A stretch of DNA of 64,000 bases from Macrophomina tecta (taxonomy: Eukaryota; Ascomycota; Dothideomycetes; Botryosphaeriales; Botryosphaeriaceae), in assembly GCA_024180945.1 (NCBI GenBank), contig JAKSGN010000003.1, positions 3,100,001-3,164,000 on the forward strand, read 5' to 3'. Positions 15,434 through 47,786 of this stretch are shown piece by piece. The notes beneath the pieces are model-generated. The model saw only the letters and a list, made by a program, of their open reading frames with translations, had not been told where the DNA came from and searched no databases. Numbering within the stretch: position 1 is the first letter of the stretch; every line of letters begins with the position of its first letter. Made by a program: the position numbers and the translations under genes.

Positions 15434-18158
15434 CAGACATCCCAGTAATAAATATATATTTATTATTAAGGGCATATTTATTGTTAAGCTTTTCCATAAG
15501 GATAATAATATAGACGCTGCCAATAAATATATATTGTTAACTATTAATAATATAGGCCCACTATTTTCCAGCGCCAATTCCCCCAGAGTGTTTCAGATTA
15601 AATTGCAGTCTTGTACGCATATTACTGCTTATCAGGCCTCTAGATAGGAGGTGAACTCCAATGTTTGTAACTCCTAGCAACCGAAACTGCTGCCTCGCCA
15701 TACCCGTCACGTTGCAAGTACGCAGTTCGTAATACATCAGCGACATATCTCTACACACGACAATGGACGTCAACATATCCTCACTGCCCCAATCCAATGC
15801 CCCGTCAAGTTCTTCCTCCGTGGTACCCTCTGACAGTGCCTCACAAGTTGCCAGCACACTGTCAGAACCCGAGGCATCGTCAGCTCAGCATACGGTCAAG
15901 AGACGGAAACTGAGAGCCACATTAACATGGGATCACTTTCGAGAAGCTCAAGGCGACGAGCCACGTACTATGAGCGGGAAATTACTTCACTACTGCACGC
16001 GTTGTCGCAATCCATCCTGGTCAACCCACATATCTGGCAACGCCCGCTATCATCTCGAGAAGGCTCATCACATACTTGTTCGAGAGGATTCAAAATCTCA
16101 AAACAGGCGCCAACTAGCCATCGAAAATGCCTTCGCAAGAACAACCGGCAAGCGGCTGCAGCAAGTCAGGGAGAATGAGATGAACGCTCTACGGAGTGTA
16201 ATCAATGTCGATGCCTTTCGAGAGGCACAGATGTTGCTATCCGCACATAAACATTTACCGCTCAACTTCGTAACCTGGCCGGAATACCAGGCACTTCTGG
16301 CCGCGATAAACCCTGCCGTTGAAGAGTTCCTAACTGATTCCGGTAGCACAGTTGCGGCGGACTTGGATAGGGCCTACGATGCGCATCAACAATCCGTAAA
16401 GGAATGGCTAGAACGTGCCCGGAGCCTCGTACACATTGCTATGGACGTATGGCCTTCTCCTCAGCGGAAGGCCTATATCGCTGTTCACGCCCAATGGGTT
16501 GACGAGGCCTACAAACCTCGGAAAGCATTGCTAGGGCTACCAAACCTCCGCCGCTCTCACGCCGGCACGGCTATGGCACCTCACTTGATGACGATTATCC
16601 GACAGTACCACTTAGCGCCCCGAATCGGCTACTTCACTGGGGACAATGACGCAAAGAATGACACCTGTCTCCGCCAACTTGCTGTTGAGCTGTCGCAAGA
16701 GTACGGCCTTACACTTGACCCAGTGTCCTCTCGAACGCGGTGTGCCGGCCACATCATTAACTTGTCCCTTCAAGCCTTTCTCTTTGCAACTAGTGAGGAC
16801 GCTCTGCAGGCCGCAATTGCGCAGGCGCAACACGAGGTAAATGATGTAACAGTTGCGGACGCGTTACACGACCAAATTCAGTCGAACACTTGTCACAAGA
16901 GTCACGACAGGCGCAAGAAACGCCATGACACTGCCGGCTGGCGGAGCATCGGCCCAATGGGTAAACTCCACAACATTGCGGTGTTCATCCGTAATTCCAC
17001 AGTGCGCAACGATGCATGGGATGACATTGCAGAAAAGGCGCTTGGAATTGACAATATCACCCGTTGGAACTCATGGTTCAAGTTGCTTGATGCGGCTATC
17101 AGCCAAGAGGGTCCATTGTCAATATTCCTCAACCAATACCACAACGAGCTGGAAGACGACATCCTCACACATGATGATTGGCAAGTACTCAAAATGACTC
17201 ACGAGTTCTTGCAGCCGTTTTACCAAGCGACCTTGGAGCAGCAAATGGAGTGGGCATCAATAGATCAGGTGCTAGAGAATATGGATATTCTTTTCATGCA
17301 GTTTGAGAATGCCAAGGTAAGCCATGGACGGCTCGATCGATTACCAGACCTGGACTGATGTTAAAGCAGGGCAAATACGCCAGCAACGCGCGTATGGTTC
17401 ATTCCATTCACATGGGTTGGTGGGTTCTCTCGAAGTATTATGAAGAGAGTGACAGAAACCCAATATATGCCACGGCATTATTGCTCCATCCAGAAAAGCG
17501 CCGGAGGTACCTTGACCGCCACTGGGCAGAGGAATGGAGGCAGACCGCTATTGCTGGTGCACGGCAGCATTGGGCGAAGTACAAGGACCGGCCACTCCCG
17601 TCGGAGTCCGCGGCTCGGCTGAACGACGAACGACGGGAAGTAACACCGTACGAGCGTATCAAGCAGTCAATGAGTGTCTTGGATGAACCCGGAGATGAGG
17701 ATGAATTCGAAAAATTCGTCAATTCTCCGCCAAGACCTATGACGACCAAAACACCGCTTGAATGGTGGTGTCGAGAAGAACAGAGGATTGAGTATCCACG
17801 TTTACACCAATTGGCCATTGACATACTAAGTGTGCCGGCGATGTCCGACGATCCGGAACGGGTATTCTCTTGCGCAAGGCGGACAATTTCTTGGGACAGG
17901 GCACGGCTCTCGCCTGATACTATCGAGAAGCTTCAATGCCTGAGCAACTGGGTGAAGAATGACTTGGTCCGCAAAGTCTACGTGGCAGTAGATGGTAAGG
18001 TCATGGATATTGCTGGCGGCAACGACGACATGCATGGCGCTTCAGTTTTATATTAATAATTATTGATAAGCTTAGCAATCGATAATAATATTAGGATCTG
18101 CCAATGAATACATAAGAATATGTCAATATTATGTATTTATTTATTATTGGGATGTCTG
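15434..18158 (+). mobile_element. hAT DNA transposon, left copy, 2,725 bp
   Basis: The element is bounded by terminal inverted repeats of about 21 bp with one mismatch, starting CAGACATCCCA at both ends (15434-15454 and 18138-18158). It contains one intact transposase gene at 15763-18056 in the same orientation. The 329-bp leader and 102-bp trailer are AT-rich. A subterminal direct repeat of about 45 bp, containing AAGCTT, GATAATAATAT and CTGCCAAT, occurs near both ends (about 15487-15530 and 18069-18115). An 8-bp duplication and a CAG terminus are standard for hAT. The flanking octamers of this copy differ (CTGAGACA versus CTTGCAGC), so the two sides come from different insertion sites. The copy at 45054-47778 is its inverted twin: position x here pairs with 63212 minus x. 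Confidence 0.95.
15763..18056 (+). CDS. hAT transposase with BED zinc finger (left copy)
   Basis: Two exons, 15763-17316 and 17370-18056, with a 53-bp GTAAGC...GCAG intron give 746 aa. The N-terminus is Ser-rich, followed by the basic KRRKLR and a BED-type finger: W and F near 55-60, C78-x2-C81 and H97-x4-H102. The RNase H-like core has the first catalytic Asp in AMDVWPSP (D228) and the second in GYFTGDNDAKND (D294). It also has the LLGLPNL and SHAGTAM segments that usually lie between them. The C-terminal dimerisation region shows WWCREEQRIEYPRL, DILSVPAMSDDPERVFS and LSPDTIEKLQCLSNW. All conserved blocks are present and the frame is unbroken, so the enzyme is potentially active in cut-and-paste transposition. 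It differs from the other copy at one residue, A142 here and T142 there. Confidence 0.93.
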
Positions 18159-18166
18159 CTTGCAGC
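18159..18166 (+). repeat. 8-bp hAT target-site duplication, site B (left partner)
   Basis: CTTGCAGC abuts the inner end of the left hAT copy. Its matching partner is the reverse complement GCTGCAAG at 47779-47786 beyond the second copy. It lies within coding sequence of the AAA ATPase gene (Val-Leu-Gln-Leu). Confidence 0.93.
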
Positions 18167-21100
18167 TCGTACATTCCATGCAGTACACCGTCGCGAATCT
18201 CCAAAGGCTTCCATTCCCCACAACCGGAAACCTACCGCAATCTAAAACGCAGGCAGAAAACGTTGTAGGCCCTCAGAGTCCAACAAAGAGATCCGAAGAT
18301 GAGTATTTCCGCAAGCTAAGGGAATCCGAGAAAGCTGCGGCATACCTCAGGCCCGATGTAATCACTTTGATCGGCCCGATGAATCAAATATACAGTCTTT
18401 CATTCGAAAAATGCAAGACATGGAAGGCAAGTGAAAGTTGTCGTTTTCATGCGTTACAAAACGGGCTGACGAGTTGCAGGGCATGAGTGAGGCAATGAGG
18501 CAATTGTTTCAAGACTGTTCGTGGCCCGTGGAATATGGAGTAATATTCGGTGAGGGGAAACACTTTGAGAAATACTTTAACGTAATCAGACAATTGCCGG
18601 AGAAGGAAAAGACGGAGAGCGAGACTGCCATACCACTACGAGACTGGGAAAAGTTAGTACAACCGGGCTGGACCGTTGGCGTACAGTTGCTGCGTGAGCG
18701 GATTTTCCAAGACCTCCAGTCTCCGAATATGCTGCCCATGGAAGTTTTGACCCACCTGGATCCAATCGAGCGGCCTTCTGCCCCTATAGTATCAGCATAT
18801 GAGAATAAAGTTCAGTACACCGTTGACTTCTTTGAAAGAGATGGAAATTACGGGAACAGATTTCTGTATCAAAAGAATTACGCTGCTCCAATCTCATTTC
18901 GTGTAGCTCAGGAGCCAAACACGACCCGATCGGTACTTCAGGAAGTCAAAACAATCATCCGATCACAGACAGCCAGGTTCAGAAATCCTCACCCTGGCCA
19001 TGGAGCGGACCTGCCATCTTCACCACCAACGTACTCAGCTCCTTCAGATGAGCTCAACAGAGGGGATATTGTCGGGCAGACATCTCTCCACATTCACTCC
19101 AATCTTCTCTTGAATGCTCTCAGGTCTGTCATACAGTTCCAATCTCTTCAACCGCTCAGACAAAGTGCCTCGATGATGGGGTTTCCGTCAGAGGCCCCAA
19201 ATCAGCTTACCCCTGAGCCGGTAACCGACTTGGAGAATGGAATTTTCCTGTACCCATTCAAGGACTTGTTCTTCCACAGAGACGCATTGAAGCGCTACAA
19301 AGCATCGCAGGATATCAGCAGGCTACGCCATACAAACGAGTACAACCGACATTGCGACGAGCACATCGATATCCTGCTGGAGTACCTAGATACAAATCCG
19401 AACGTGCGGGTAGATGTGGCAGAAGATATGTTCAAACGTGGTGTCGCAACATTCAAGTGGGTCTGGCTCCTCCTGAGGCCCGGTGCGCCTGTCTATGTCC
19501 GCGAAGGAGAGGGGCTACTGAACTGCTACATCGTCGAGTCAGTGGAGCATTCAGAGCCACTGGAGAAAGCCCTCAATTGCAAAGTGGACCTCTGGAACCT
19601 CGATTTCAATGGGAGATACTTGAGTCGGACAACAAAAACAGTACAGATCCCTTTTTTCGAAGGCGAGAAAAATATCTCTGAATTATCGGTGTTCCCCACC
19701 AGTCGTTCAGGCGACGCCAATCTTCAAGCATCACTTATCGAGCGTGGCAAGAAATTCGTCGACATTTTAAGGCGGTCCGCTGTTCAAGAATATAGCGGAC
19801 CCAGCGGAAGGGATGGCGTGAAAAGGGTATGAGCCCCTCTGGCGAAGAAATACGATCTGATATTCAACTAAAATGAAACAGTACAACTCGTCCAGGCTAA
19901 TCGTGGACTACACCGATAGGCCATGGGAGCAGCCTGGTTGGGACAAGCCGCACCACCCCTGTAAGGTGGACTATAAGTACGGCCTTGGGTCGAGAACACG
20001 GGTCCAAGCCTGCGAGTGCTCAATCTGCGCAGCAGAAGAGGCGCTCAGCCCGGGCTACGGAACGCGAGCATACTCAGACTATGATAGTATAGACCTCAAA
20101 CAAGCGGGGGACCTTACAGACCTTCAGTACATGCTGTGCTGGTCTCACGTTTATGGATTTTCATTCCAAGACCGAACCTATGGTGAGCGTAACAAGTCCA
20201 GGGGGTTTATCATCGTCGTTGACATGTCGCACAGATTTGTTTGCTGTCCATGGGCTAAGGGAGGCAACCTTCAACAAAGATATGATCAAGGATCTAATTG
20301 TTGCCGATGCTACCAAAAAGATGGTAATGGCACTTTGTGAGGTTTATGACAGAAACGACCAAGAGAACAACCTTTTTCCTACCGAGTTGATCCGAGGAAA
20401 GGGGGAAGGGCGAATTATTCTCCTACATGGTGCACCCGGCACTGGCAAGACGTTCACCGCCGGTAAGATATGCGAGAGAAAAATCTTTCGAATTAACCAT
20501 TAAGCTGAAATCAACAGAACTAGTAGCAGAGTACACGGCAAGGCCTCTTTTGACTATCACAGCCGCCGATCTTGGAGATGAACCAGGGACGATGGAACGC
20601 ACGCTACAACGCTTCTTCCGGGATGCAGGGCGGTGGGACGCCATTCTTCTTCTGGATGAGGCCGACGTTTATGTTGCGAAAAGAACAAGAGATAACCACA
20701 AGACTAACGTCATTGTGTCTGGTGAGTTGCAGCCTCACGATTCGCGAAGAGATCCGCTAATTTGTATCAAGTGTTCCTTCGCGCTCTGGAGTACTTCAAA
20801 GGGATCCTTTTCCTCACAACAAATCGTGTAGGGGTATTCGATGAAGCCCTCATGACCCGAATTCATGTGCAAATACATTATCCACGTCTGACACGTGAGG
20901 CACGACAGAAGATATGGTCTTCTAAAATTCACAAACTTCGAGATAACCACGTCAACGGTGGACAGCAATTTCACTGCGACGAGGCAGTTGAAGAATTCCT
21001 GCACTACGACAGTACACTTGACGAGTTCGAGTGGAATGGAAGGCAGATCTCTAATGGTATGGATCTAATCTGTGGTCATTGAAACACAACTGATTTCGGG

Positions 21101-21404
21101 ATTAGTTTTTCAAACGGCCGTTTCTCTTGCAGTATGGGACGCCAAGGCAGGACATCTGCGACGGCAGATACCGATCTTGAAAGTAAGACATGTCAAGCAA
21201 GTAGTGGAAATGTCGAGGGACTTTCAGGACTATCGTAAAAAGGTCGTCAGGTTGGACGAAACAACTTGGGCTTACAATACAAGAATGCGTGCAGATGGTC
21301 CTTCACCGACACTCCAGGCGAATGACACCAGCAAGGGGATATTCCATCCCACGGGTCCTCATGGCTGGGCTGATGACTCTTCTGAAACCTCATCAGAAGC
21401 ATAG
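18159..21404 (+). pseudogene. ULD-DUF7025-AAA+ ATPase, 3' part (5'-truncated by hAT/inversion)
   Basis: Seven exons: 18159-18426, 18480-19826, 19882-20182, 20235-20462, 20518-20721, 20772-21056 and 21106-21404. They give about 976 codons with no start of their own. Order: a linker, a ubiquitin-like ULD segment (LIGPMNQIYSLSFEKCKTWK then MSEAMRQLF), a long middle region matching the DUF7025 pattern (FKWVWLLLRPGAPVY ... VDLWNLDFNGRYL ... IPFFEG), then an AAA core. The AAA core has Walker A GAPGTGKT, Walker B ILLLDEAD, sensor 1 FLTTNR and the Arg-finger region TRIHVQIHYPRL. The first intron uses a GC donor; the other five use GT. All junctions keep phase. The first codons read in frame through the octamer CTTGCAGC, and upstream coding continues on the minus strand at 47787-48461. 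These proteins are common in Pezizomycotina; their function is undefined. Confidence 0.85.
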
Positions 21405-21815
21405 TTAGACGGCTTGGCAACGATCTCTGGCACTCAAGTAAGGCAGTATGGCGATATGTTTTTTCTCTTGTGCTTTTCCTTTCGTCTAGTCATTTTATTC
21501 TTTGTTAATCTTGTCATTATCTACTACTAAGGTCACGCTGTAATATAATTCCCATAGTCAAATTGATGTTTGTTTCATTGTTTGCTCTAGTATGCCAACA
21601 TCTTTCCACTTCTGTGCTATACCGTATTGGCACCATTGCTCCAGTTGGTTGTTCCACATCAAGTATATGAACTACTTAGGGTCACTTCTTGAAACCATGA
21701 ACGAAAGTTCTCATTGTTCCGTGAAGCCGATGTATTCTGGGAGTACCGGCGCACTGGACCGGAATTGTGGGCGCCGTCGTGGCTTAACTCTACTTTTTCC
21801 TTTCCATTTCGCCAC
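21405..21815. other. intergenic, convergent 3' ends
   Basis: The spacer between the AAA gene and TDP1, which converge here, is AT-rich and T-rich just after 21440. No gene seen. Confidence 0.5.
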
Positions 21816-24047
21816 TCAAAACCCATCCCATACATACCCCTTAACATCCGGCTCCCCATACTTCGCTGTTGCGCACCAGGGCTTATCCCCCCTTCCGTAC
21901 GGTGTCAAGGGCAGATCATACGGCATCCGCCACCCCACCACAACTCTTTTTTCTTTCTCTCTACTGGCGTTGCCTTTCCACTCCTCTCCCGCGAGCTCCA
22001 CTGTATCTTCCTCACCTCTCAAACCCTTCCCAACAACTGGAACCATAACCACCTCCCCTTCTCCACTATCGACAAACAGCTCCGGCCACACCACAACTCC
22101 GATCTCCCAACTACAAACCCTCACTTCCTTCCCGCTCTCACCCTGGATCTTCACCCTCGCCCTCGCACCGCCAGCACCACCAGCACCACCAGCACCACCG
22201 GGCCCCTCCTTTCCCACCACCGGTAATGCCCCCCACGCCTGCGTGGATAAATTAGCACTCGTCAGCATTGCCCACTCAATGCACGTTCCCTCACCACCCA
22301 GTCCCTGATCAGAAGGATACCTGTACCGGACATACGTCTTGATATGGGGGGCAGCCAGGCTCCTTAGGGCAGAACACCCGTTCTGAGGAGCGGCTCTGGA
22401 GGCCGACGAAGAGGTGGTGGGTGAGGCAGCGGCGGCGGTGTTCCAGCGGCAGAAACGGGGCCGCATGTAACCAAGCTGTTTCTGCTGTTTCGCGCTCTGC
22501 GTTTTGAGGTGGATGGAGGCACCGGAGTAGTAGCCGTCGAGGGACGTGCGGACATCGGCGACAGAAGGAAAGATGATTTTGAGGGGAGGGTAGCTCTTCT
22601 GTGCGCTTTTGAGAGTGGAGGAAGAGATCAAGAGTTGGGAGGCTGGTTTGAAGGCGGAAGAGCCGCTCGTCTTTTCTGAAGTGGTGCTGACGCTGGAGGA
22701 TGGTGCTGCCACGGCGGCGGTAGACTTGCGGGCTGCTAGCACGCTTTCGAAGTGCTCTAGCCAGGCACCGGTCTGGCCAAGTGTTGCGATTGACGAGATC
22801 TGCGCTACGAGAAGTTCATCTTCGTTGGTTGCCGCTTTTGCTGAGGCGCGGACTGGAATCTGGTGGAGCACTTCGCGGAGGCCCACCCAACCCCACGATG
22901 TCTGCTTCTCAGGTTTGGTATCATCCAGCTTCACCCGGTGCGGTGTGCTGGCCACAAGCGCAGCGCGGATAGAAGAGAAATCATAGCGGAGGAGCTGCTC
23001 CGTGAGAGAGTGGAGACGCTTCCCGTAGGCGCCGAGGTAACGTAGAAGATCTGTCTTAAACCTCTCGCCACTACCGATCGAGTGATTTTCACGACGAATT
23101 CCTCCGGGCGAAGAAGACGAAGTTGCATTCTGCGAATACTGGGGCCGAGATACTTGCATTGATTCCGGTAACAGCGGCAGAAGTGGAGACCGCCATACAG
23201 CATTGGTCATATTCGTCCAGTCCTTTCTGATCATGTTGGCGGTATGGATCACAACCTGCGCCAAGTCGTCTGCGCGAATAAGCACCATCATCTTTGAGTG
23301 ATGGGTGCCGAAAGGCTCAGGCATGTAGGCCTGAATGACTTCAAGGTTCGGGTACGCCTTCGCCCATCTCTCCATCAACAGCCTCTGCTGGTCCTCACGT
23401 CGCCAGTTGCCATGCACCACTTTCACTCTTACTGTGTCCCTGACGTCCTCATCTAGAGCATTCATTAAGAAGTCGACGTCGAAGAGGTAGTTGAACTGCC
23501 ACACCTCGACGATGAGCGGGTCGCACAAGATATCCTTCAAGGTAACCGTATCCAAGTTGGCCGCGGGAGGGAGATCTTGTATACGTGTGAGCTGGATGGG
23601 CGAGGAAATGAACTTCGTCTTCTGCGGCCGCTGCTCTCTACCGTCTCCGCTCAATGCTGCCGCCTGTTCGACCACCTTCAACGCCTCCCGTTGCTCCTCC
23701 TTCGCGGCCGATTTCGCTTCGTCTTCTACCTTCCGGACGCCACGTCCCCGCGGCTCCGCATCATCCTCATCCTCTGTCTCCGCCTCACTCTCCCCTGCAC
23801 CCGCCCTCCTCGCTGGCGGGCTAACCGCCCGGTGCAAGCTCTTCAACAGCCGCTGTTCTCGCACGGGCGCATCCGCGCCGCCGTGCGCCTTCTTCACCCT
23901 CTTCCTCGCCGGCCCATCCGACCCATCTTCGTCCTCGCCCTCAGCCAAAGCACCACCCTCACTCTCGTCTTCGGTCGTCGCCTCATCCTCTGCAACCCCA
24001 GTAAAGAGTGGCGGCTGCGACAGGGGCGGAGGATCGGAAAACGGCAT
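21816..24047 (-). CDS. TDP1: tyrosyl-DNA phosphodiesterase 1
   Basis: Single-exon gene of 743 aa. Residues 1-145 are a low-complexity acidic/Ser-rich tail with the basic patch ARKRVKK near 47-53, probably a nuclear localisation signal. The catalytic region carries both atypical HKD motifs of the Tdp1 branch of the phospholipase D superfamily: HHSKMM (H250, K252) followed by HTAN, and PHIKTY (H568, K570) followed by TSANLS. Tdp1 hydrolyses the 3'-phosphotyrosyl bond left by stalled topoisomerase I, so it acts in nuclear DNA repair. Extra Gly/Ala-rich inserts near the second motif lengthen it relative to many homologues. The next gene upstream is OLE1, in the same orientation about 0.9 kb away. 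Confidence 0.93.
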   Translation of the reverse strand: MPFSDPPPLSQPPLFTGVAEDEATTEDESEGGALAEGEDEDGSDGPARKRVKKAHGGADAPVREQRLLKSLHRAVSPPARRAGAGESEAETEDEDDAEPRGRGVRKVEDEAKSAAKEEQREALKVVEQAAALSGDGREQRPQKTKFISSPIQLTRIQDLPPAANLDTVTLKDILCDPLIVEVWQFNYLFDVDFLMNALDEDVRDTVRVKVVHGNWRREDQQRLLMERWAKAYPNLEVIQAYMPEPFGTHHSKMMVLIRADDLAQVVIHTANMIRKDWTNMTNAVWRSPLLPLLPESMQVSRPQYSQNATSSSSPGGIRRENHSIGSGERFKTDLLRYLGAYGKRLHSLTEQLLRYDFSSIRAALVASTPHRVKLDDTKPEKQTSWGWVGLREVLHQIPVRASAKAATNEDELLVAQISSIATLGQTGAWLEHFESVLAARKSTAAVAAPSSSVSTTSEKTSGSSAFKPASQLLISSSTLKSAQKSYPPLKIIFPSVADVRTSLDGYYSGASIHLKTQSAKQQKQLGYMRPRFCRWNTAAAASPTTSSSASRAAPQNGCSALRSLAAPHIKTYVRYRYPSDQGLGGEGTCIEWAMLTSANLSTQAWGALPVVGKEGPGGAGGAGGAGGARARVKIQGESGKEVRVCSWEIGVVVWPELFVDSGEGEVVMVPVVGKGLRGEEDTVELAGEEWKGNASREKEKRVVVGWRMPYDLPLTPYGRGDKPWCATAKYGEPDVKGYVWDGF

Positions 24048-24943
24048 AGCGATCGGCTAGGCCCAGGCAGTGCGTGGTGCCGTGATACCCAGCGAAAGAG
24101 GAACGAAGCAGTCCGGCGTGGAGGCGTTGACGTCACGTCCGGCGGAGAAAAAACGCTTGTGGTCCGTTGGCAGACAAGCGCCGTCCCTTGCGTCAGGCAG
24201 CAGAGACGTAGGCAGGTCTAGGGCGGTCCGGAGAAAAGCAAGGCTGGGGGGCAGGAAATGGGGTGCCCGCGTGGCTGATGTCTTGGCTCTTGCAGCGCCT
24301 CTTGTCACAAGCAACAAAATGGTAGGCAAGTCGGGGTGGATGGGTGGCGTCGTTGCTCGCGCTCGCTCACACTCACGCGTTTGCCGGAGGCGGGAAGAAG
24401 CGAGGGAAGCGGGCAGGCACGCGTGTGTTGAGGCACCCTCCTTGTGCGACCGTAACCCTTTCACTGCAGTAGAGATGCGAGATGGATACGTGACCTGGTC
24501 ACTTGCCCAGGCTGCAGCATTCGCCCGACCAGAGTTGCTAGTCGCGACCATCATGTGGGCCTTGCAATTACTCAGCTTCAAGTGCTTGATCTAGACAATC
24601 CCAATCATTCACGCATGAAATATCGAAGTTCATACTTCAATCGAAGGTTTGAAAATAATGAGCGAGTAGAATGCCACATTGGAGTGACCAGTTGATTTCT
24701 AAATATGCGCATTAGAGCCGCCATAGCGACTCAAAATGTCCGCCCCAAAACCGCGCCCTATTCTAGGACCACGGCATGTGAGAAAGTTAGATTTCAATCT
24801 CACCAGATACAAACGAGATCAATGCCCGCTACCCTCCGTTGAACGCCTTTAGAACGAGAGCCCAGACATCGCTGAACTTGAAACACTTATTCACCTCCAT
24901 CCCAATTTTTGATATTCCGTTCCGTTTGCACCTTTCATTACGT
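24048..24943. other. intergenic: TDP1 upstream region and OLE1 3' region
   Basis: GC-rich to about 24600 (probable TDP1 promoter and 5' UTR), then more AT-rich toward the desaturase stop. A 174-codon open frame on the + strand at 24070-24594 has an Arg-rich composition with no domain and looks incidental. Confidence 0.5.
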
Positions 24944-29829: not shown

Positions 29830-29856
29830 GAACTGCACAACACTTCCTTCGCCGCC

Positions 29857-33795: not shown

Positions 33796-34008
33796 ATGAT
33801 CATTTGCGGAATTTTCTTCAACGGAGCAAGTGGTCAAGTCTTCGGGAAGTATTCGAGGATATGTGCAAATACACAAGTAATAATTCTTTCCACGGTTCCA
33901 GGATGATGTGCCGGGTGAAGTTCGCAAGTATGGGGCGTTCTGCAGCACGCTTCTACAAAGCATGTTCCTTCACATATCCCTTCGTTGTTTGCCTTCTGTC
34001 CACCATAA

Positions 34009-34554: not shown

Positions 34555-34811
34555 CGTGGGCGATTCCGTCGTTCAATGGCAGGTTGAAGGTGGAAAGGGT
34601 CGTGGTGGATGTAGATGGCTGCGTCATCGCGACCCTCAGCCCTACAGCTTGGCGCGTTCGACCAGAAATTCCATGCGTTCTGCCCTCCACTCCCTCGCCC
34701 ATATCCTACAGCAACCCTCACGCGATTGCCCTCCGAGCTTCAACCATACTCTTGCGAGTTCTCATACACCACGCCAGAGCCCGAAGGCCACTACGAACAC
34801 GCCACTCCACA

Positions 34812-37514: not shown

Positions 37515-37853
37515 TGGAAGGATGGAAGGGAATGACGAGCAGAAAGCTTGACTGAGCGAATGATGTTACAAGAAATGACAGTGGCATTAACAAAATCAGC
37601 TTCTTGTCCAAATGATGCTTTGGGTCATGTTGAGGCCGTGTTTCAAGCAAGCGAGAAGAAAGCTGGGTGCTGAATCGAGGGAACCAGCTAGCTGTGCATA
37701 TGCGTGACTCATGCGGCATTGACGTCGCGCGTCTTCCGCTCGCGACGCGTCTCACCCACGCATCAACCCATCCACAACATACTGGCCCATGCGGCTGACG
37801 AACTTTCAGCCACCAGCAATGCGCTGCCACAGATAGCGACCGCTGTTCAGGAC
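37515..37853. promoter_or_regulatory. bidirectional promoter region
   Basis: The 339 bp between the divergent MOSC gene and the RAD51 paralogue hold no gene and must contain both promoters. Confidence 0.55.
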
Positions 37854-39287
37854 ATGGATTTACATTCGTCCTCGCAGTCTGCCCGTGCGCCAACTCCCCC
37901 GCCGAAATATACAGTCTTGCTAACCGGAGAGCAGACAGACTTCCCACCGTCTCCGCCTCGCAGGCACTTCGCTCACTCAAGATCGGTGGCTCTCGCGCCA
38001 TTCCGACCGGCCTCAAACAGCTCGATGCCCTGCTGCAGCCAAGCACTGGTAGCCAAGGCCAGCGAGGCCTTAGCCGCGCCCAGGTGACGGAAATATATGG
38101 ACCACCAGGGTCCGGCAAGACGGCTCTTGGGTATGTGCATACTGGAACTGTTTGAGCTGTATTTGAAGTGGTAGTAAAAGGCTGAACCTCAATGGGAAGG
38201 CTCCAGGCGACCAAGAATGCACTACAGAGAGGCGGCCATGTTGTCTGGATAGGTGTGTGAACATGGTTCTACAACACTAGGGGTATATCGTTGACCAAGA
38301 TACAGATGCCGCCGACTCTGTATCTAAACCGCGTCTCGAAGCACTGCTATCTACCTCTCCTCCGTCATCCGCCGAGGGGTTGAGCTCCTCTGTCGACCAA
38401 AGCCTCACCGTGACTGATATGCTCCAACGCTTCCACCACTACTTTGTCCCATCGCTGGCGCATCTTTTCGCCATGGTTCTACACCCGCCAACAACTTTTC
38501 CTCCGCAGGGGACTTCCTTGGTTGTGATTGATTCTGTCTCGACCTTGTTTGATTCTGCCTATCCGCGGACTCGAGCCGCAAAGGATAATAAAAAGGACGG
38601 GAATTGGACAGCAGGGAGGCGATATGCTGTGATGAGCAGCCTCATCTCTTCATTAAGTAAGATTGCAGCGATTCGAGATATTCCTGTAGTCGTCACAAAT
38701 CAGGTCACAACCCGATACAGAGAAGACGTTGCATTACTGGCTCCTGCGATGGCGGGGTCAGAATGGGACAATGGCATTGCAACACGACTTGTCGTGTTCA
38801 GAGATTGGCCGCCTGATCCGGGGAGGCTCGTGGACTTTAACGACGAGAAGATCAAACAGATCCGCTACGTTGGCATAGTTAAAGTTGCGGGGGTGGCTCT
38901 CAGAGACGCTGATGGATTAGGCGCCATAATTCCATTTTCCATAGGATCTGTAAGCTTTTCTAACCGGCTGCATCGTTCCTAGCTAATGATCCCTAGTCTG
39001 GACTCTCTGATGTTGACCTGAAAACGGTGGAAGTGCCCATTCAAACACTGGCCTCTCCAGCGCGGCCAGCAACACGGACATACACGGAAGTCGCCGATTC
39101 AGAGGATGAACTCGGCTCTGACGAGTTGTACGGGTGGGGTGAAGATGATGATGTTGCTGCTGAGGGCCTTCTTGTCGACGAGACAGCGCTCACGAACAGC
39201 TCTTCTGGAGGAAGGTCGGGTCAACCACCTCAAAAGAGGAGAAGAACCGACGAACCGGAGCCTTCCCCTCCACCAGAGCAAGAATGA
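37854..39287 (+). CDS. RecA/RAD51-family recombination mediator (Rad55/Rad57/RAD51D-like)
   Basis: Five exons, 37854-37884, 37935-38130, 38200-38252, 38306-38949 and 38997-39287, give 404 aa in continuous phase. Exon 1 encodes only ten codons; intron 1 (50 bp) has a clear GCTAAC branch point and explains why the frame containing the Walker motif has no ATG. The core has the substrate-loading signature IPTGLKQLDALL, Walker A GPPGSGKT (66-73), VVWIDAADSV, Walker B SLVVIDSVS (D169) and the L2-side strand IPVVVTNQV. The C-terminal 90 residues are acidic and Ser-rich and contain the basic KRRR. The family helps load Rad51 onto single-stranded DNA in homologous recombination. Which paralogue it is cannot be settled without alignment. 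Confidence 0.87.
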
Positions 39288-39347
39288 ATACGCTTTTGGT
39301 GGCCTGTAACTCCGTTCCTGTGCGACCTTGAGCTAATCTATTCGTCT

Positions 39348-42300
39348 TCAGCGGCAATACCTCAGGTTCTCGAGTATCCTGACGACTGGCTCGACGAATA
39401 CCGAGTCGGCTGTTCCCCTCCTCATTATAATTGTGAAGGCGTCAATAATCTGTGGAAGGCCGCAGGCGCATAAGAGATTGCCGTTCATGGATGCCTTTCC
39501 GCCGTTCAAGATCCAGTAGTTGGCGTACTCGGAGTCTACTGGCCCCCAGATTTCTGCCAACTCGCATACGACCCGCGGCCCGAAGAAGGGGCTCGACATC
39601 CCTGGATCCTCCTGGGTTTCGGGAGAGAGGTCAGAGCACAGCTCGCAGACCAGGTTGGATCGAGTGTAAGCCCATACTACGAGGCCTGCACGGAGCATGC
39701 AGCCAACGCTGAAGGGATCAATGCGCTGGAAACTCGAAGCAAACATGTCCACCTCTTCCGCATACAAGCGGAACATTTGCGCCGCATATCTCACCGCAAT
39801 TCTTGCATTCCTCGACCCCGCCCAGGCATGGACGCGGTTCTCAAGCCTCCGATTCGACATGGAAGACATCGACGCCGGCGTTGTCCTCCCGCTCTTTTCC
39901 TTCTGCAAGCTTGCGCTCAATCGTCTTATCAACACCACATCCGCATGCATCCGGACATACGACAAGAAGTACAGCATCGATGTGTTGAAGCGCGTTCGTC
40001 GCCAGTGCGCCGGCGGCGCGTATCCAGTGTTGACCTGCTGGCAGCGCTCACGAAAGACCCGCCAGTGTTCTAGCTGCGCGTGCCATCCCTCACCGAAACC
40101 GACAAACTCTTGCGCAATCAGGTCATTCGGCCCCACTTCGTGGCCGTCCACCACCCGCCCTTCTCGGACTATTCCGCCTCTTGCCCCCGCAGTACCTCGG
40201 TTTGGCCCGAAATCGTACGCGTCACTCGAGTTTCCGAACTCCTCGTGCCGCTGCTGTGTGTCTTCCCATAGGCGAGCTTGCATGGCGCAGAGGCCGAGTT
40301 CGAAGTCTTCCTCGAGCAGGACAGGGATGGTTTGCCGGGTGTTTGCGGAGGCTGCAGTGGCGCAGATGGAGGAAAAGGTCTTGTGCAATCGGCCATTGGG
40401 CTCGAGAAGGCGGGCCCGCCGCCAGTCGTCGACGGTGTATGCATCCCAGAGGGCGAGCGTACATTGGAGAGGAACACGAACTTCCTGGAAACGGATCGAG
40501 GGGGCGCGATCATGGATGATGGACAGGTAGGTGTCGAGACGGAAGATGGACATTGAAAGCCTTGATGGGGGTTTAGTCAACTTTGGACAGAGGCCAAGGC
40601 TATAAGCAACAAACCTACCGTTTTTTGGCTTCTAGTTCCAACCAGCGCTCATAGTCTGCGTCATTGCCTTGGCCGAGACCGGAACTGCAGCTTGAGGACG
40701 AGCTGGAGACCCTTTCGTGGTGATCAAGGATCCTATCGCTTTGGAAAAGGCCGGCTTCGCGGATCCACTCGATGAGTGTGCTGAGACTTGAGGAAATGCG
40801 AAGGCGGAGTGCTGTTTGCTGTGAGTTGTTTATCAGCGGGTTTCTCTGCAGCTGTAGGCATTGATTTTCTGGCAGGGCTTACGTCGATGCAGATACCGTA
40901 AATGATGTTCAGCAGAAGGGCTTGAGCCACGACGAAATTTGCCTGGCTGGTTTCGTCTCCCGGATACGACTCTTCGACTCGCCACTATGAGGCAGAGGTT
41001 CGTTTAGCATATGTTTCCTCTCAGTACTCTGTTTGTTTCTTCCAGCAATATCCGTCTCTTGCCCGAGTAGTATCCCCTGCCAACACCCTTTACCTCGCTT
41101 GAAGTACGGAAAGGAAGAAAAAATTTGTGATAATACCTGATTCAGATGAGCGCTCAAGTTGGTCAACAACCACTCGTGGACCTCTCTCGCTGCATTCCGG
41201 AATGTGTCGCGTTCCTCGTCACTGCGTCTGGAACCTCCTCCGCCATCCCCAGAACCACCTCCCCTCTCGCCCCAACGCTGCTGTTGCTGCCTACTCCTCC
41301 TCGTCTCCTCTTCGTCCCTCCTCGTCCTCACCGAGCCCCTCACACTCCCCGGCGACCCACCGGGGCCCCACGGGCTCGTACTCCCACCCGTCGACGCTCC
41401 ACCTTGCTGCTGCTGTTGCTCCAAGAACAAACTTCCCACCAACCCCACGCTCCACACCAGCTCGACCGGCTGCTCCTCCAGCCGTTCCAGGAACCGGCCC
41501 CGGTGCAGCATCGGCCAGCAGTAGTGGAAGTCGCCAAAGTACAGCGAGATCAGCTCCGGTGACACCAGCCGCGCCGCCAGCGCCCGGATGAACGGGTGGG
41601 GCGTCAGGATCGTCGGGTACGCTGTCGTCGTGCGCGCGGCCAGGCGCATGTGCGTCAGCTGCGCGTGAGCGTGCGGTGCGGTCGTCGGGTGCGTGAGCGG
41701 GTGCATCGGCTGCGGTTGCGGCGCTGCTGCTGGGGCTGGGGGCTCGAGTTGTCGGACGGAGCGGAGCGGTCGGAGAGGTTGCGGCGCGTGGAGTTGGTGG
41801 TATGGGGGCTGCTGGGTTGGGGGCGAGGGGGTGGAGTGCGCGGAGTGCGTTGCTTGTGGGTAGGGGTGGTGGGTTTCGGCGTAGTAGGAGGGAGAGGGGA
41901 CAGGGGCTTGCGTGTGCAGGGTCGGCGCCGTGCTGCTAGGGGTGATGGCGGTAGTCGTGGGGGCTGTTGGTTGGTGGGCCGTTGATGCGTTGGTTTCGAC
42001 GGGGTTGCCGCTGGCGTCGAGGCCGGTTATGATGGATTTGTAGGCGGCCGCGGCGGATATCAGGTTGAGGACCGTACTACTTGGGCGTTGCTGTTGCTTG
42101 CTATGGTACTGTTCCAGTGCCTGTTGGTGCTGCTGCGCTTGGAAGTGGTGGGCGTCTTTCTGAGGCCGCGTGTATGGGCTCGGCGTCGCGGTGTAGGAGG
42201 GCGGCGGGGAGAAGCTCTCTTCGTCTTCGCACCGGCCTTGCGGACTGTGGGACATTGGGGCTTCGTTATCAGACCCGCTGCTGCTGCTGCTGCTGTCCCG

Positions 42301-42967
42301 GAAAAAGGAAGTTCCCTGAGGGCTGGGCGGTCCAACTGCTGCTGCGGCTGAGGATGAGGTTCCTCCACGAGGTGGTGATAGGCGCTCTCGCTGGCAAAGG
42401 GCTCCGCTCTCAACGCAGCGGGTGCATGGCAGTTCTCCGGAACAGCGCTCCTTGCGGGTGTGGCACCGATCACACGCTGAAGAGGCTCGGAGGAGGCGGG
42501 TGCTGCCGGTTTCTTGGTGATGCGCGAGATGCCGCTTCAAGACATCGCTAACAGGTTACAGGCGTCAGAGTGGTGTTGACCGTCGGGTCCAAGCAAGGTT
42601 TTAAGATGGTGTCAAATTGTACGGATGAAGTGTTTGGGACAGAGAAAGAGACAATAGGAGCTCCTGAGCTTCCTCAAGAAGCGACGGACGGATTCATGAA
42701 AGCATGAACAGCTCACCTTCTGGCAAATGCGCGCTGGCAGACGCCACAGACATGAGGACGACTTGAGCTGTGGTGGGCTTGAGCATGTCTGTTGAGGTGC
42801 TCGCGCCGGCGGAAACGCTTCCCGCAAGCGCATACGTACTCGGCAGGCATGCCGACCTCAGGACACGGGTTTCGGACCTCGAATCGTCCTAGAGCCGGGC
42901 TTGGCTGCTCCGAAAATCCTGCGCTTCGGAGGTTGGGGCGGAAGGGGAGATCGGCAGAGACACTCAC
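39348..42967 (-). CDS. C2H2 + Zn2Cys6 transcription factor with fungal-trans domain
   Basis: Five exons on the minus strand, 42717-42967, 41137-42547, 40883-40984, 40619-40818 and 39348-40560, give 1,058 aa. The N-terminus has two C2H2 fingers, YVCACGKRFRRREHLNRH (about 45-61) and HVCGVCQRAFARS completed across intron 1 by DVLKRHLAHH. A Zn2Cys6 cluster follows with C109, C112, C119, C125, C128 and C135. A long Gln/Pro/His-rich linker leads to the fungal-trans middle homology region, beginning around LISLYFGDFHYCWPMLHRGRF. This double-finger layout is a recognised Pezizomycotina class of nuclear regulators. Target genes are unknown. After undoing the inversion it would lie directly downstream of, and in tandem with, the carotenoid oxygenase gene. 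Its 3' end converges with the RAD51 paralogue, 60 bp apart. A further 5' exon cannot be excluded. Confidence 0.9.
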
Positions 42968-43385
42968 GCAGCAGCAACTGGGGCCCGCGGGAAGGCAGGA
43001 ACTGACGCTGCTTCACGTATGTAGTCGGGGGGAGAAAGCTAGCTACTCGCACGTTACGGCGTGGCCGACGTTGTCCAGAAGAGCCCAATAAGAGAGCCTT
43101 GCAGCACCCCCTTCGCCTGGATATGTAATATCTGCCCTGCAGTAGCGCTGCCGATTTAAAGTTTGGCACTTGCAACAAGTCGCAACCCACGAGTCAAACT
43201 TTGACACAACCTTCCCCGCGTGCCAGCCCGTCGCCAACGCCCAATGAGAGATAACCCCCCCGGTGCGAAAAATGACGCCCGTCCGGCCATGAGAAGCCGT
43301 TTTTTCCTGACTAAAGCTCATCTTTGTGCGCCTCATCGAACCTTCTCCCGCGCCGCATGCTTCGTCATCCCGCTTTCTGTCAGTG
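42968..43385. other. spacer between oxygenase 3' end and zinc-finger gene
   Basis: The 418 bp should contain the promoter and leader of the zinc-finger gene. No gene or repeat seen. Confidence 0.5.
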
Positions 43386-45036
43386 TTAATTCGCGGGGTA
43401 GAGACGCCCCATGTCGGGCAGGGGCTCGATGAAAGGCCCCGTCTCCGGAATGCGCTCGGCGTCGACCCAGTTGCCATGCACGGCCGATCGGAGGCCTACG
43501 ACACAATCGAGCAAGCCGTTAGCCATGGTGATAACCGTCCCCGCCCCCTTTCGTATCCGAGCCTTCCGACGCCCGCCGCGATCTCGGTCCTGCCCGGACG
43601 AAGTATCAACGCCGAGCGGCGGCTACGGTAGCGGCGCAGAGAAAGCCTATTCGCACACCTCGACTTACGGAATGGCAGGATGACGCGTGCCACTACCTGC
43701 TGGAAGTCACGCGTGTCCTGGATGATCTGCCGGGCACCAACGCAATTTAGCTTTCTTCGCCCCTTGGCTGTCATGTTCATCTCATATCGATGCGGCGCTT
43801 GCGCTGGGGACGAGGAAATGCCTCTCTCTTGGAATCAGGACTGGAGAGGTCTGGACTCACGATTTCATTGCGTTCAAGGGGGATGTTATCCACCAACGTG
43901 ATCAGGAAGCCATCCCCTTCCGCCGCATTGGGTCCGCGAGCGCTAAAGCATGGTTCTTGCACCAGGACTCCTGGTCCGGGCGACATCACTTCCAGCGTCT
44001 TTGCCTCGTTGTCGTACCGTGCCAGGCAGTTAAGTCCTCGATATAGAAGCGCTGGGTCTGCTACGGCCGTGGGGTCGAAACAGTCCATGAAGGTGTAACG
44101 CGCTGAGTCGTTGATAGCTCGGTTAGTGGGATTGAAGTTTCAAGTGCTTCACCTCTCCATTTTGTGTATGGATAAGGATAAGCGTGCGAGCATATAACGG
44201 GTCTGACTTGGAGGCGGAACGGATTGAGAAGTGAGCCAGGCCAATAGGAATTTGGCTCCGGGATTCAGAGCAGTATCTTGCAGCCCCCATCCCTCTTTTA
44301 TCTCGCTTTCCAGTCGTTCCGCTGTCCCAATCAGACACCTTAGCACTTGGCAAACTTATTACACTTACATCTACGGGTTAGGAAGCGCTCATCCGTCCGT
44401 GGAAACTCGCATGGAACGTTGACGAGAACCTCTGCGCGGATGTGGGTCAGCGTCTGTCCGAATCACGAATTGGATAGAACTGCGTGAATATCCCACCGGG
44501 ATCATCCAGTCGATCCGTCTCAGCTTGCGGATCAATCTCGAACCTGACATAGTTTACTGTCACCGTCTGGCCGCTTTCGTCGCTCGATTCCTTCTTGGTT
44601 GCTTTTGCGGAGATGATTAGCCTCACTCATTTGCCTCAAGTGATGGACTATGGCACTTACGGAGGAAGGGAAATGCGTTTCCGATAGCGACACTAGTGTC
44701 GAAATATCTGCGCGAGCGGTCAGGCCGCAGGGACAGCCGCAGAACCCGCCGCACCGTCTGTGTGCACTTACACTTTCCCGTCCTCCTCCCACGACGCGCC
44801 TGTATGGACCGGCATGGCATTCTTCCACTTGAACCAGCGCACCGGTTGGTCTAGATGCTTTCTTGGAACAAGGCCGAACCAAGCCGGCACGGACTCGTCG
44901 TATGTCCTACTGTGTGATTGGCTCAGGTAATCGGAGTTAACGCACTGATTACATACCACATATGTCCGTCCGGTTTTTCAACGTTCCTGGCATCGGCCAC
45001 GAATGGCATCTGCTGTAGTACGGCATAATTCTCTGT
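43386..45036 (-). pseudogene. carotenoid/stilbene cleavage oxygenase, 3' half (split gene)
   Basis: Eight exons on the minus strand: 44957-45036, 44772-44909, 44661-44707, 44497-44601, 44369-44431, 43861-44102, 43669-43726 and 43386-43495. They encode the last 280 residues and the stop of the oxygenase that begins at 14369. Exon 1 opens with TENYAVLQQMPF, the segment that follows HDCAI in this family. The remaining iron ligands are seen in PVHTGASWEED and SAVHGNWV. RTDERFL, YRGLNCLARYD and EGDGFLITLVDN are further family marks. All donor and acceptor phases match, and the start is phase 0, as required by the 5' half. Between 45036 and the hAT element lie the acceptor side of the broken intron (45037-45045) and the octamer TGTCTCAG. 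There is no promoter or start codon, so it should not produce enzyme. The 266-bp intron 44103-44368 is unusually long for this gene and is the least certain junction. Confidence 0.87.
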
Positions 45037-45045
45037 CTGAAGCTT

Positions 45046-45053
45046 TGTCTCAG
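45046..45053 (-). repeat. 8-bp hAT target-site duplication, site A (right partner)
   Basis: TGTCTCAG on the + strand is the exact reverse complement of CTGAGACA at 15426-15433. It abuts the inner end of the right hAT copy, inside the broken oxygenase intron. Confidence 0.93.
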
Positions 45054-47778
45054 CAGACATCCCAATAATAAATAAATACATAATATTGACATATTCTTAT
45101 GTATTCATTGGCAGATCCTAATATTATTATCGATTGCTAAGCTTATCAATAATTATTAATATAAAACTGAAGCGCCATGCATGTCGTCGTTGCCGCCAGC
45201 AATATCCATGACCTTACCATCTACTGCCACGTAGACTTTGCGGACCAAGTCATTCTTCACCCAGTTGCTCAGGCATTGAAGCTTCTCGATAGTATCAGGC
45301 GAGAGCCGTGCCCTGTCCCAAGAAATTGTCCGCCTTGCGCAAGAGAATACCCGTTCCGGATCGTCGGACATCGCCGGCACACTTAGTATGTCAATGGCCA
45401 ATTGGTGTAAACGTGGATACTCAATCCTCTGTTCTTCTCGACACCACCATTCAAGCGGTGTTTTGGTCGTCATAGGTCTTGGCGGAGAATTGACGAATTT
45501 TTCGAATTCATCCTCATCTCCGGGTTCATCCAAGACACTCATTGACTGCTTGATACGCTCGTACGGTGTTACTTCCCGTCGTTCGTCGTTCAGCCGAGCC
45601 GCGGACTCCGACGGGAGTGGCCGGTCCTTGTACTTCGCCCAATGCTGCCGTGCACCAGCAATAGCGGTCTGCCTCCATTCCTCTGCCCAGTGGCGGTCAA
45701 GGTACCTCCGGCGCTTTTCTGGATGGAGCAATAATGCCGTGGCATATATTGGGTTTCTGTCACTCTCTTCATAATACTTCGAGAGAACCCACCAACCCAT
45801 GTGAATGGAATGAACCATACGCGCGTTGCTGGCGTATTTGCCCTGCTTTAACATCAGTCCAGGTCTGGTAATCGATCGAGCCGTCCATGGCTTACCTTGG
45901 CATTCTCAAACTGCATGAAAAGAATATCCATATTCTCTAGCACCTGATCTATTGATGCCCACTCCATTTGCTGCTCCAAGGTCGCTTGGTAAAACGGCTG
46001 CAAGAACTCGTGAGTCATTTTGAGTACTTGCCAATCATCATGTGTGAGGATGTCGTCTTCCAGCTCGTTGTGGTATTGGTTGAGGAATATTGACAATGGA
46101 CCCTCTTGGCTGATAGCCGCATCAAGCAACTTGAACCATGAGTTCCAACGGGTGATATTGTCAATTCCAAGCGCCTTTTCTGCAATGTCATCCCATGCAT
46201 CGTTGCGCACTGTGGAATTACGGATGAACACCGCAATGTTGTGGAGTTTACCCATTGGGCCGATGCTCCGCCAGCCGGCAGTGTCATGGCGTTTCTTGCG
46301 CCTGTCGTGACTCTTGTGACAAGTGTTCGACTGAATTTGGTCGTGTAACGCGTCCGCAACTGTTACATCATTTACCTCGTGTTGCGCCTGCGCAATTGCG
46401 GCCTGCAGAGCGTCCTCACTAGTTGCAAAGAGAAAGGCTTGAAGGGACAAGTTAATGATGTGGCCGGCACACCGCGTTCGAGAGGACACTGGGTCAAGTG
46501 TAAGGCCGTACTCTTGCGACAGCTCAACAGCAAGTTGGCGGAGACAGGTGTCATTCTTTGCGTCATTGTCCCCAGTGAAGTAGCCGATTCGGGGCGCTAA
46601 GTGGTACTGTCGGATAATCGTCATCAAGTGAGGTGCCATAGCCGTGCCGGCGTGAGAGCGGCGGAGGTTTGGTAGCCCTAGCAATGCTTTCCGAGGTTTG
46701 TAGGCCTCGTCAACCCATTGGGCGTGAACAGCGATATAGGCCTTCCGCTGAGGAGAAGGCCATACGTCCATAGCAATGTGTACGAGGCTCCGGGCACGTT
46801 CTAGCCATTCCTTTACGGATTGTTGATGCGCATCGTAGGCCCTATCCAAGTCCGCCGCAACTGTGCTACCGGAATCAGTTAGGAACTCTTCAACGGCAGG
46901 GTTTATCGCGGCCAGAAGTGCCTGGTATTCCGGCCAGGTTACGAAGTTGAGCGGTAAATGTTTATGTGCGGATAGCAACATCTGTGCCTCTCGAAAGGCA
47001 TCGACATTGATTACACTCCGTAGAGTGTTCATCTCATTCTCCCTGACTTGCTGCAGCCGCTTGCCGGTTGTTCTTGCGAAGGCATTTTCGATGGCTAGTT
47101 GGCGCCTGTTTTGAGATTTTGAATCCTCTCGAACAAGTATGTGATGAGCCTTCTCGAGATGATAGCGGGCGTTGCCAGATATGTGGGTTGACCAGGATGG
47201 ATTGCGACAACGCGTGCAGTAGTGAAGTAATTTCCCGCTCATAGTACGTGGCTCGTCGCCTTGAGCTTCTCGAAAGTGATCCCATGTTAATGTGGCTCTC
47301 AGTTTCCGTCTCTTGACCGTATGCTGAGCTGACGATGCCTCGGGTTCTGACAGTGTGCTGGCAACTTGTGAGGCACTGTCAGAGGGTACCACGGAGGAAG
47401 AACTTGACGGGGCATTGGATTGGGGCAGTGAGGATATGTTGACGTCCATTGTCGTGTGTAGAGATATGTCGCTGATGTATTACGAACTGCGTACTTGCAA
47501 CGTGACGGGTATGGCGAGGCAGCAGTTTCGGTTGCTAGGAGTTACAAACATTGGAGTTCACCTCCTATCTAGAGGCCTGATAAGCAGTAATATGCGTACA
47601 AGACTGCAATTTAATCTGAAACACTCTGGGGGAATTGGCGCTGGAAAATAGTGGGCCTATATTATTAATAGTTAACAATATATATTTATTGGCAGCGTCT
47701 ATATTATTATCCTTATGGAAAAGCTTAACAATAAATATGCCCTTAATAATAAATATATATTTATTACTGGGATGTCTG
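45054..47778 (-). mobile_element. hAT DNA transposon, right copy, 2,725 bp, inverted
   Basis: Same length and same terminal inverted repeats (45054-45074 and 47758-47778) as the left copy, in opposite orientation. The AT-rich ends that I compared base by base are identical to those of the left copy. The only difference found is at 47026 (paired with 16186), changing Ala to Thr. No excess of C-to-T change at CpA is visible, so the copies have escaped repeat-induced point mutation and are recent. Its two flanking octamers differ from each other, but each matches one flank of the left copy. Confidence 0.95.
45156..47449 (-). CDS. hAT transposase with BED zinc finger (right copy)
   Basis: Exons 45896-47449 and 45156-45842 on the minus strand, with the same 53-bp intron as the left copy, give 746 aa. 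BED finger, catalytic Asp blocks and C-terminal dimerisation region are all intact. It differs from the left copy at a single residue (Thr142 instead of Ala142), located after the zinc finger and outside the catalytic blocks, so it too may be functional. Confidence 0.93.
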
Positions 47779-47786
47779 GCTGCAAG
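47779..47786 (-). repeat. 8-bp hAT target-site duplication, site B (right partner)
   Basis: GCTGCAAG on the + strand is the exact reverse complement of CTTGCAGC at 18159-18166. It abuts the outer end of the right hAT copy, within coding sequence of the AAA gene. Confidence 0.93.

What the first reader, a model, noticed from the sequence alone, without database searches (positions are those of the whole stretch)
15434..47778. 27-kb inversion between two hAT copies, proven by swapped target-site duplications
Seen directly: the two 2,725-bp hAT elements lie in opposite orientation (15434-18158 and 45054-47778). Neither copy has matching flanks. The left copy has CTGAGACA outside and CTTGCAGC inside; the right copy has the reverse complement of CTGAGACA inside and of CTTGCAGC outside. 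Flipping 18159-45053 gives each element a perfect 8-bp duplication and at the same time repairs two genes, one at an intron and one in phase through an exon. hAT elements make 8-bp duplications (established). Inference: ectopic recombination between the copies inverted about 26.9 kb carrying some ten genes. An assembler flipping the segment between near-identical inverted repeats would look the same and must be excluded.
Basis: partly seen in the sequence, partly recalled or inferred. Interest (0 to 1): 0.95.

Follow-up and report, generated by a model that had tools for sequence, protein, structure and literature searches.

The report
hAT transposon swaps reshuffle fungal chromosomes
Two opposite copies of a young "hAT" jumping gene in a Macrophomina-like fungus carry each other's insertion scars, the mark of a 27-kilobase flip by recombination between them, and many sister copies in the same genome show similar exchanges, although an assembly error is not fully excluded.

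Summary
Each flank pair also divides a gene. A lignostilbene/carotenoid dioxygenase is split at a phase-0 intron. An open frame leading into a DUF7025-AAA ATPase is split in phase.

The genome-wide picture is larger. The 54-Mb host assembly (Macrophomina kin) holds 104 left and 106 right element ends. Of 101 copies read on both sides, 63 have perfect 8-bp duplications and 38 do not. In 27 of those 38 the left 8-mer recurs as another mismatched copy's right 8-mer (shuffled mean 0.11). This closes six reciprocal pairs, two inversions and four exchanges between contigs, plus one three-way cycle. A Copia element split by the C6/C7 exchange carries its own matching duplication on both contigs.

Best explanation: ectopic crossing-over between recently multiplied hAT copies. 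The mechanism is known (Galileo in Drosophila); the scale for one family in one fungal genome is unusual. Misassembly remains the main rival, since some contigs start inside hAT copies and two round-length contigs are exchange partners. No reads or sister genome could be checked.

The parts
15434..18158 (+). hAT element, copy A (2,725 bp; transposase ORFs 15763-17358 and 17358-18056)
   Evidence: identity, ends; ORFs; Dimer_Tnp_hAT 1.5e-15
45054..47778 (-). hAT element, copy B, inverted, 1 mismatch to copy A
15426..15433 (+). CTGAGACA, half of the original duplication of insertion 1 (outer side of copy A)
45046..45053 (-). CTGAGACA on the minus strand, other half of insertion 1 (inner side of copy B)
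18159..18166 (+). CTTGCAGC, half of the original duplication of insertion 2 (inner side of copy A)
47779..47786 (-). CTTGCAGC on the minus strand, other half of insertion 2 (outer side of copy B)
18159..45053 (.). inverted segment, 26,895 bp; ORFs with family matches include a tyrosyl-DNA phosphodiesterase, a Cyt-b5 desaturase, a purine-type permease, a Dak1 domain, STEEP1, a MOSC N-terminal domain, and zinc-cluster and C2H2 regulator domains
14228..15386 (+). 5' part of a lignostilbene/carotenoid dioxygenase gene (RPE65 profile 3-178); the start coordinate is that of the first ORF with a match
15387..15433 (+). 5' half of the interrupted intron (GTAAGT donor)
43777..45036 (-). 3' part of the same dioxygenase gene (RPE65 profile 212-438), now about 30 kb away and reversed
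47779..48485 (-). putative 5' coding part of the DUF7025-AAA gene, outside copy B (open frames only, no family match)
18159..21401 (+). 3' part of the DUF7025-AAA ATPase gene (DUF7025, AAA, AAA lid); Macrophomina phaseolina protein P0001 matches 18738-21401

Best explanation
Two hAT copies inserted in opposite orientation about 30 kb apart, one in an intron of a dioxygenase gene and one in an exon of an ATPase gene, each making its own 8-bp duplication (shown by the sequence). A crossover between the two copies then flipped the 26.9-kb segment between them and exchanged one half of each duplication (inferred; the standard signature). The flip is one of about twenty exchanges between copies of this family left in the genome as a ledger of mismatched duplications. 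These include two reciprocal inversions, four reciprocal exchanges between contigs, one three-way cycle and several open chains (shown as flank pairings; the crossover step is inferred). The substrate is a recent burst: 47 of 49 copies read in full differ from their consensus by a mean of 0.08 per cent. Neighbouring copies often share rare variants, as expected if the element hops locally and so creates nearby inverted pairs (inferred).
For: Exchanged 8-mers at the window pair. 104 left and 106 right ends genome-wide. 63 of 101 two-sided copies are perfect and 38 mismatched; 8 of 8 bases match, or 5 or fewer. 27 of the 38 mismatched left 8-mers recur as another mismatched copy's right 8-mer, against 0.11 in shuffles. 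The C6/C7 exchange is confirmed by a second duplication: Copia positions 1-429 lie on C6 and 422-5333 on C7, with GATTG on both outer ends. 7 of 20 independent links are within one contig against 5.8% of copy pairs, and 4 of 20 are within 60 kb against 20 of 5,253 pairs (links counted by hand, background pairs from 103 copies, the 60-kb limit chosen after seeing the list). The window pair and the copy 34 kb upstream share variants 490T and 1020C; close pairs share rare variants in 4 of 10 cases against 42 of 1,166. The C6 and C7 partners are the only 2 of 49 fully read copies with 1140G, one of the 49 not being scorable there; in all, 2 of 7 linked pairs read in full share a rare variant. Large inversions and translocations between two long-read M. 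phaseolina assemblies are published (PMC6829926: abstract, passages and section 5).
Against: No reads, no Hi-C and no sister assembly were available. Three contigs (C16, C24, C25) begin about 4 bases inside a hAT copy and a fourth (C35) begins within one, so the assembler did stumble at this repeat. C25 repeats a locus already present on C31 with a different hAT allele. C29 (3,215,000 bp) and C37 (3,345,000 bp) have round lengths, as if cut after assembly, and are partners in one reciprocal exchange. 11 of 38 mismatched copies have no mismatched partner for their left flank. One Copia split (C20) is linked by the hAT 8-mer but not by the Copia duplication, and that 8-mer lies inside Copia, so the link is weak. 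The two copies in the window are too alike to show chimerism (one difference).
Confidence: 0.78

Rival explanations
1. Assembly error: the assembler or scaffolder linked the wrong unique flanks through identical hAT copies, and the true genome has matched duplications everywhere.
For: Same flank pattern as a real exchange; contigs C16, C24, C25 and C35 begin inside hAT copies; C25 duplicates a C31 locus; round contig lengths of the exchange partners C29 and C37; no TTAGGG x4 array found.
Against: Multi-Mb contigs contain full hAT copies with private variants. The 5.3-kb Copia duplications match in 6 of the 7 copies examined, out of 9 full-length copies listed at 99-100% identity, so 2.7 kb should be easier to span. 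Links favour the same contig and close neighbours far beyond random pairing of copies. A local flip made by a scaffolder is not excluded by that bias.
Confidence: 0.17
2. Transposase-driven alternative transposition (reversed ends, or hybrid element insertion) made the inversion.
For: Known for hAT elements of maize (PMC8225341 passages); hybrid element insertion can mimic exchanged duplications (PMC2775673 passages).
Against: Reversed-ends events create new matching 8-bp duplications, but here both are old ones exchanged. Hybrid insertion predicts identical copies, and these differ at position 753, though a later mutation could do that. Reciprocal exchanges between contigs with both elements intact fit crossing-over.
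Confidence: 0.03
3. Both orientations coexist in the sequenced culture, the inverted repeats recombining repeatedly, and the assembly shows one isomer.
For: The repeats are intact and near-identical. Contig C25 shows the same Copia and outer flank as C31:2128816 but its hAT copy has the 738 deletion, which the C31 copy lacks. C16 likewise shares 400 identical bases with C20:285243-285642 but has the undeleted allele, while the C20 copy has the deletion. So two versions of a junction may be present in the reads.
Against: Nothing here shows both isomers of the window segment. The C16 flank is repetitive (five places, two identical), so C16 may be a separate locus, and redundant contigs may be assembly by-products.
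Confidence: 0.13

Closest known systems
Galileo-generated inversions of Drosophila buzzatii (PMC2775673; abstract and passages seen)
   Same: Two copies of one DNA transposon in opposite orientation at the breakpoints with exchanged target-site duplications; ectopic recombination.
   Different: Galileo is not a hAT element (recalled); chimerism could be shown there and not here; here the same genome carries many further exchanges, including between contigs.
Ac/fAc alternative-transposition inversions of maize (PMC8225341; passages seen)
   Same: hAT elements at inversion breakpoints, 8-bp duplications.
   Different: Those inversions carry new matching duplications; these carry old exchanged ones, the stated mark of NAHR.
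hAT-derived MITE arrays at Atlantic cod inversion breakpoints (PMC12368964; abstract seen)
   Same: hAT family, inversion, ectopic recombination proposed.
   Different: Tandem MITE arrays and association there; single full-length copies with a base-exact signature here.
Large rearrangements between Macrophomina phaseolina isolates 11-12 and Al-1 (PMC6829926; abstract, passages, section 5 seen)
   Same: Same genus by protein match; inversions and translocations.
   Different: The main text has no word beginning with hAT, and the passages and section seen name no causal element; those genomes are 51.3 and 49.8 Mb, this one is 54.1 Mb and is not identified.

Membership tests
hAT superfamily element | 8-bp target-site duplication | tested here: met
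   63 of 101 two-sided copies have a perfect 8-bp duplication; the rest match at 5 or fewer of 8 bases
hAT superfamily element | hAT C-terminal dimerisation domain in the transposase | tested here: met
   PF05699 1.5e-15
hAT superfamily element | short terminal inverted repeats | tested here: met
   CAGACATCCCA ... TGGGATGTCTG at both copies
hAT superfamily element | intact single transposase reading frame | tested here: inconclusive
   Two overlapping ORFs of 531 and 232 aa; an intron would join them but no transcript was available
TE-mediated inversion by ectopic recombination | homologous copies in opposite orientation at both breakpoints | tested here: met
TE-mediated inversion by ectopic recombination | exchanged, not new, target-site duplications | tested here: met
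   criterion
TE-mediated inversion by ectopic recombination | chimeric elements | tested here: inconclusive
   Only one difference between the copies, and both share 490T and 1020C
TE-mediated inversion by ectopic recombination | a relative with the uninverted order | not testable with these tools
   The genome search states that this genome has no relatives here
TE-mediated inversion by ectopic recombination | junctions confirmed by reads or PCR | not testable with these tools
   No reads available

The most novel reading that the evidence does not exclude
One recently multiplied hAT family has reshuffled an entire fungal karyotype by crossing-over: about 38 per cent of its copies carry another copy's insertion scar. 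The mismatched 8-mers form a readable permutation from which the ancestral order of the affected chromosome arms could be rebuilt event by event, including exchanges hidden behind perfect scars that only nested Copia duplications reveal. The process may still be running in the culture.
Probability: 0.6. Interest if true: 0.8.

Novelty: new member of a known kind. Interest (0 to 1): 0.62.

Why it matters
Single inversions with exchanged duplications are known. Here one genome gives some twenty exchange links for one young family, with closed reciprocal pairs, so the rate, distance bias and products of transposon crossing-over can be counted in one isolate. If real, it supplies a concrete candidate mechanism for the large inversions and translocations already reported between Macrophomina phaseolina isolates. 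It also gives a general test: matched against exchanged duplications as a ledger of rearrangement, or of misassembly, in any genome with a young cut-and-paste element.

Tried and rejected
Telomere test: the TTAGGG x4 pattern found nothing, so contig completeness could not be judged. Chimerism of the window copies: too few variants. Homologue test of the upstream half of the ATPase gene: no Pfam match for two pieces, no second place in its own genome for the one searched, and the M. phaseolina protein starts downstream of the junction, so it was left as a frame argument. Naming the assembly: paper searches gave nothing that fits; PMC8867778 passages describe other, Illumina, Macrophomina assemblies. 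On rechecking I found that my script had printed Copia bases as if they were the flank of C25. The true flank equals that of C31:2128816, so my earlier idea of three independent composite insertions is withdrawn, and I raised the coexistence rival from 0.10 to 0.13 for that reason. Structure prediction was not used.

Full report
OBSERVATION. The window is bases 3,100,001-3,164,000 of contig C3 of an unnamed 54.1-Mb, 37-contig genome. They are the only repeat found in the window at a minimum of 60 bases with a 20-base seed. The nearest named relative of the one window gene searched is a Macrophomina phaseolina protein (95% identity over 78% of the query; exon-wise match), so the host is a Macrophomina or close kin. 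The isolate is unknown.

GENES AT THE BREAKPOINTS. Insertion 1 lies in an intron of a lignostilbene/carotenoid dioxygenase gene. Profile and structure matches of the pieces on the two sides are complementary and do not overlap. The intron of 56 nt has its GT donor on one side and AG acceptor on the other, phase 0 on both (my reading). Insertion 2 lies in an open frame that continues in the same phase on both sides. The downstream side is a DUF7025-AAA ATPase. The upstream side has no recognised domain and, for the piece searched, no second place in the genome, so this second gene claim is weaker.

THE FAMILY. The left 40 bases occur 104 times and the right 40 bases 106 times with up to 3 mismatches allowed; the 100 listed of each have none. 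I read flanks of 105 copies, 101 of them on both sides and 4 on one side because the contig starts inside the copy. Two further copies were counted but not located; by the order of the listing they lie on C37. Of the 101, 63 have a perfect 8-bp duplication and 38 match at 5 bases or fewer. Among 49 copies read in full, the mean difference from the consensus is 0.08 per cent if the two most diverged are left out. Fifteen copies carry the same one-base deletion at position 738 inside the first transposase ORF, so a defective lineage also spread.

THE LEDGER. Taking each mismatched copy as a link from its left to its right 8-mer, 27 of 38 left 8-mers recur as a right 8-mer of another mismatched copy; shuffled 8-mers give a mean of 0.11. 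Closed pairs: C3:3115434/3145054 (the window), C5:2735715/2780610 (a second inversion, copies 45 kb apart), C1:169185/C6:2823734, C6:591472/C7:2122920, C13:161106/C31:1142699, and C29:3143001/C37:3315847. One three-way cycle: C30:1974486/2479975/2531473. There are five open chains of 2, 2, 3, 5 and 5 copies and six single copies without mismatched partners. Counting n-1 exchanges per closed cycle and one per chain link gives 20 (by hand). Contigs are not known to be whole chromosomes, so an exchange between contigs is only probably a translocation.

A SECOND, INDEPENDENT SCAR. An intact Copia element (5,332 bp, 229-bp LTRs) occurs in nine full-length copies at 99-100% identity and many fragments. 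One Copia was hit by a hAT copy: positions 1-429 are on C6 and 422-5333 on C7, each next to an exchanged hAT copy. The Copia's own 5-bp duplication, GATTG, sits on the outer end of both pieces. Thus two elements, with two kinds of scar, agree that these two places were once one. On C31 a hAT copy with a perfect 8-bp scar sits in a Copia whose ends do not match (TTTAT/TTAGT), while a Copia 143 kb away carries TTAGT. So a perfect hAT scar can hide a further exchange. Against this, the Copia pieces at C20:44751 and C20:230435, linked by a hAT 8-mer, do not match at the Copia scar. Because that 8-mer is internal to Copia, I regard that link as weak.

REAL OR ARTEFACT. For artefact: C16, C24, C25 and C35 start inside hAT copies, three of them about 4 bases in (C16 read; C24 and C25 from the motif positions). 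C25 repeats a C31 locus, same Copia and same outer flank with a small deletion. The exchange partners C29 and C37 have lengths of exactly 3,215,000 and 3,345,000 bp; I read this as cuts made after assembly, perhaps to correct misjoins, which is inference. Against artefact: (a) the Copia copies are twice as long and nearly identical, and 6 of the 7 I examined (of nine) have matching scars, so the reads evidently span such lengths; the seventh, C20:268552, does not match, and seven is few. (b) Wrong links between identical repeats should be random among copies, but 7 of 20 links are within a contig (5.8 per cent of copy pairs, P about 9e-5) and 4 of 20 within 60 kb (20 of 5,253 pairs, P about 1e-6; limit chosen after seeing the list) (background from 103 copies; one of the seven is the weak C20 link). 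This does not exclude local scaffold flips. (c) Inversions and translocations between M. phaseolina isolates were found by others with PacBio and Hi-C (PMC6829926). I put a real inversion at 0.78 and an assembly error at 0.17; the coexistence rival (0.13) overlaps with the first, since it is also real recombination.

COEXISTING VERSIONS. The hAT copy at the start of C25 has the 738 deletion, while the C31 copy at the same locus has not. The copy at the start of C16 has the undeleted allele, while the C20 copy with the same 400-base flank has the deletion. If these contigs are true alternative versions, the culture holds more than one arrangement; if they are by-products of assembly, they count for the artefact rival. 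The C16 flank is repetitive, so C16 may simply be another locus.

MECHANISM. Published criteria separate the two routes: recombination between copies exchanges old duplications, whereas alternative transposition makes new matching ones (PMC8225341; PMC2775673). The window shows the first. Hybrid element insertion, which can imitate it, predicts identical copies; these differ at one base. The window pair and the intact copy at C3:3081694 share variants 490T and 1020C, and close pairs share rare variants more often than others (4 of 10 against 42 of 1,166). The C6 and C7 exchange partners are the only two fully read copies with 1140G; of 7 linked pairs read in full, 2 share a rare variant. A reasonable sequence is therefore local hopping, nearby inverted pairs, then crossover. 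Whether transposase breaks start the crossovers is unknown.

NOVELTY. The kind is known. The scale in one family and one fungal genome did not turn up in the paper searches, which cover open-licence PMC papers only and of which I saw listings, and passages or abstracts of the papers named here.

Noticed in passing
C31:2121186, C31:2268376, C25:1-2720 (outside the window): The same hAT-inside-Copia composite (Copia position 4912) appears three times with two different 5' Copia flanks (TTTAT on C31:2128816 and C25, TTAGT on C31:2263520): the hAT may have been carried by retrotransposition, or the Copias recombined.
   Followed up: partly
C29 and C37 (outside the window): Contig lengths are exactly 3,215,000 and 3,345,000 bp, and their ends lie 69 kb and 26 kb past the two partners of one reciprocal hAT exchange.
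   Followed up: partly
15 copies, e.g. C6:3022691 and C6:3068365: A one-base deletion at element position 738, inside the transposase ORF, is shared by 15 copies, so a frameshifted lineage multiplied, presumably mobilised in trans.
   Followed up: partly
C20:268552-273883: A full-length Copia with unmatched 5-bp flanks (CAACC/TGTTC): Copia copies may also recombine.
   Followed up: no
C10:691368 and C36:318980: Two hAT copies share the same 30-bp flanks on both sides; the C36 copy is 4,038 bp long, so about 1.3 kb is inserted. A segmental duplication or a redundant contig.
   Followed up: no
C10:20704-23428: A hAT copy roughly one per cent diverged with a perfect duplication: the family is older than the recent burst.
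   Followed up: no
whole genome: No array of four exact TTAGGG repeats was found; telomeres are absent from the assembly or of another type.
   Followed up: no
window 57672-59873 (-): A 733-aa ORF with a heterokaryon-incompatibility (HET) domain 10 kb outside the inversion.
   Followed up: no
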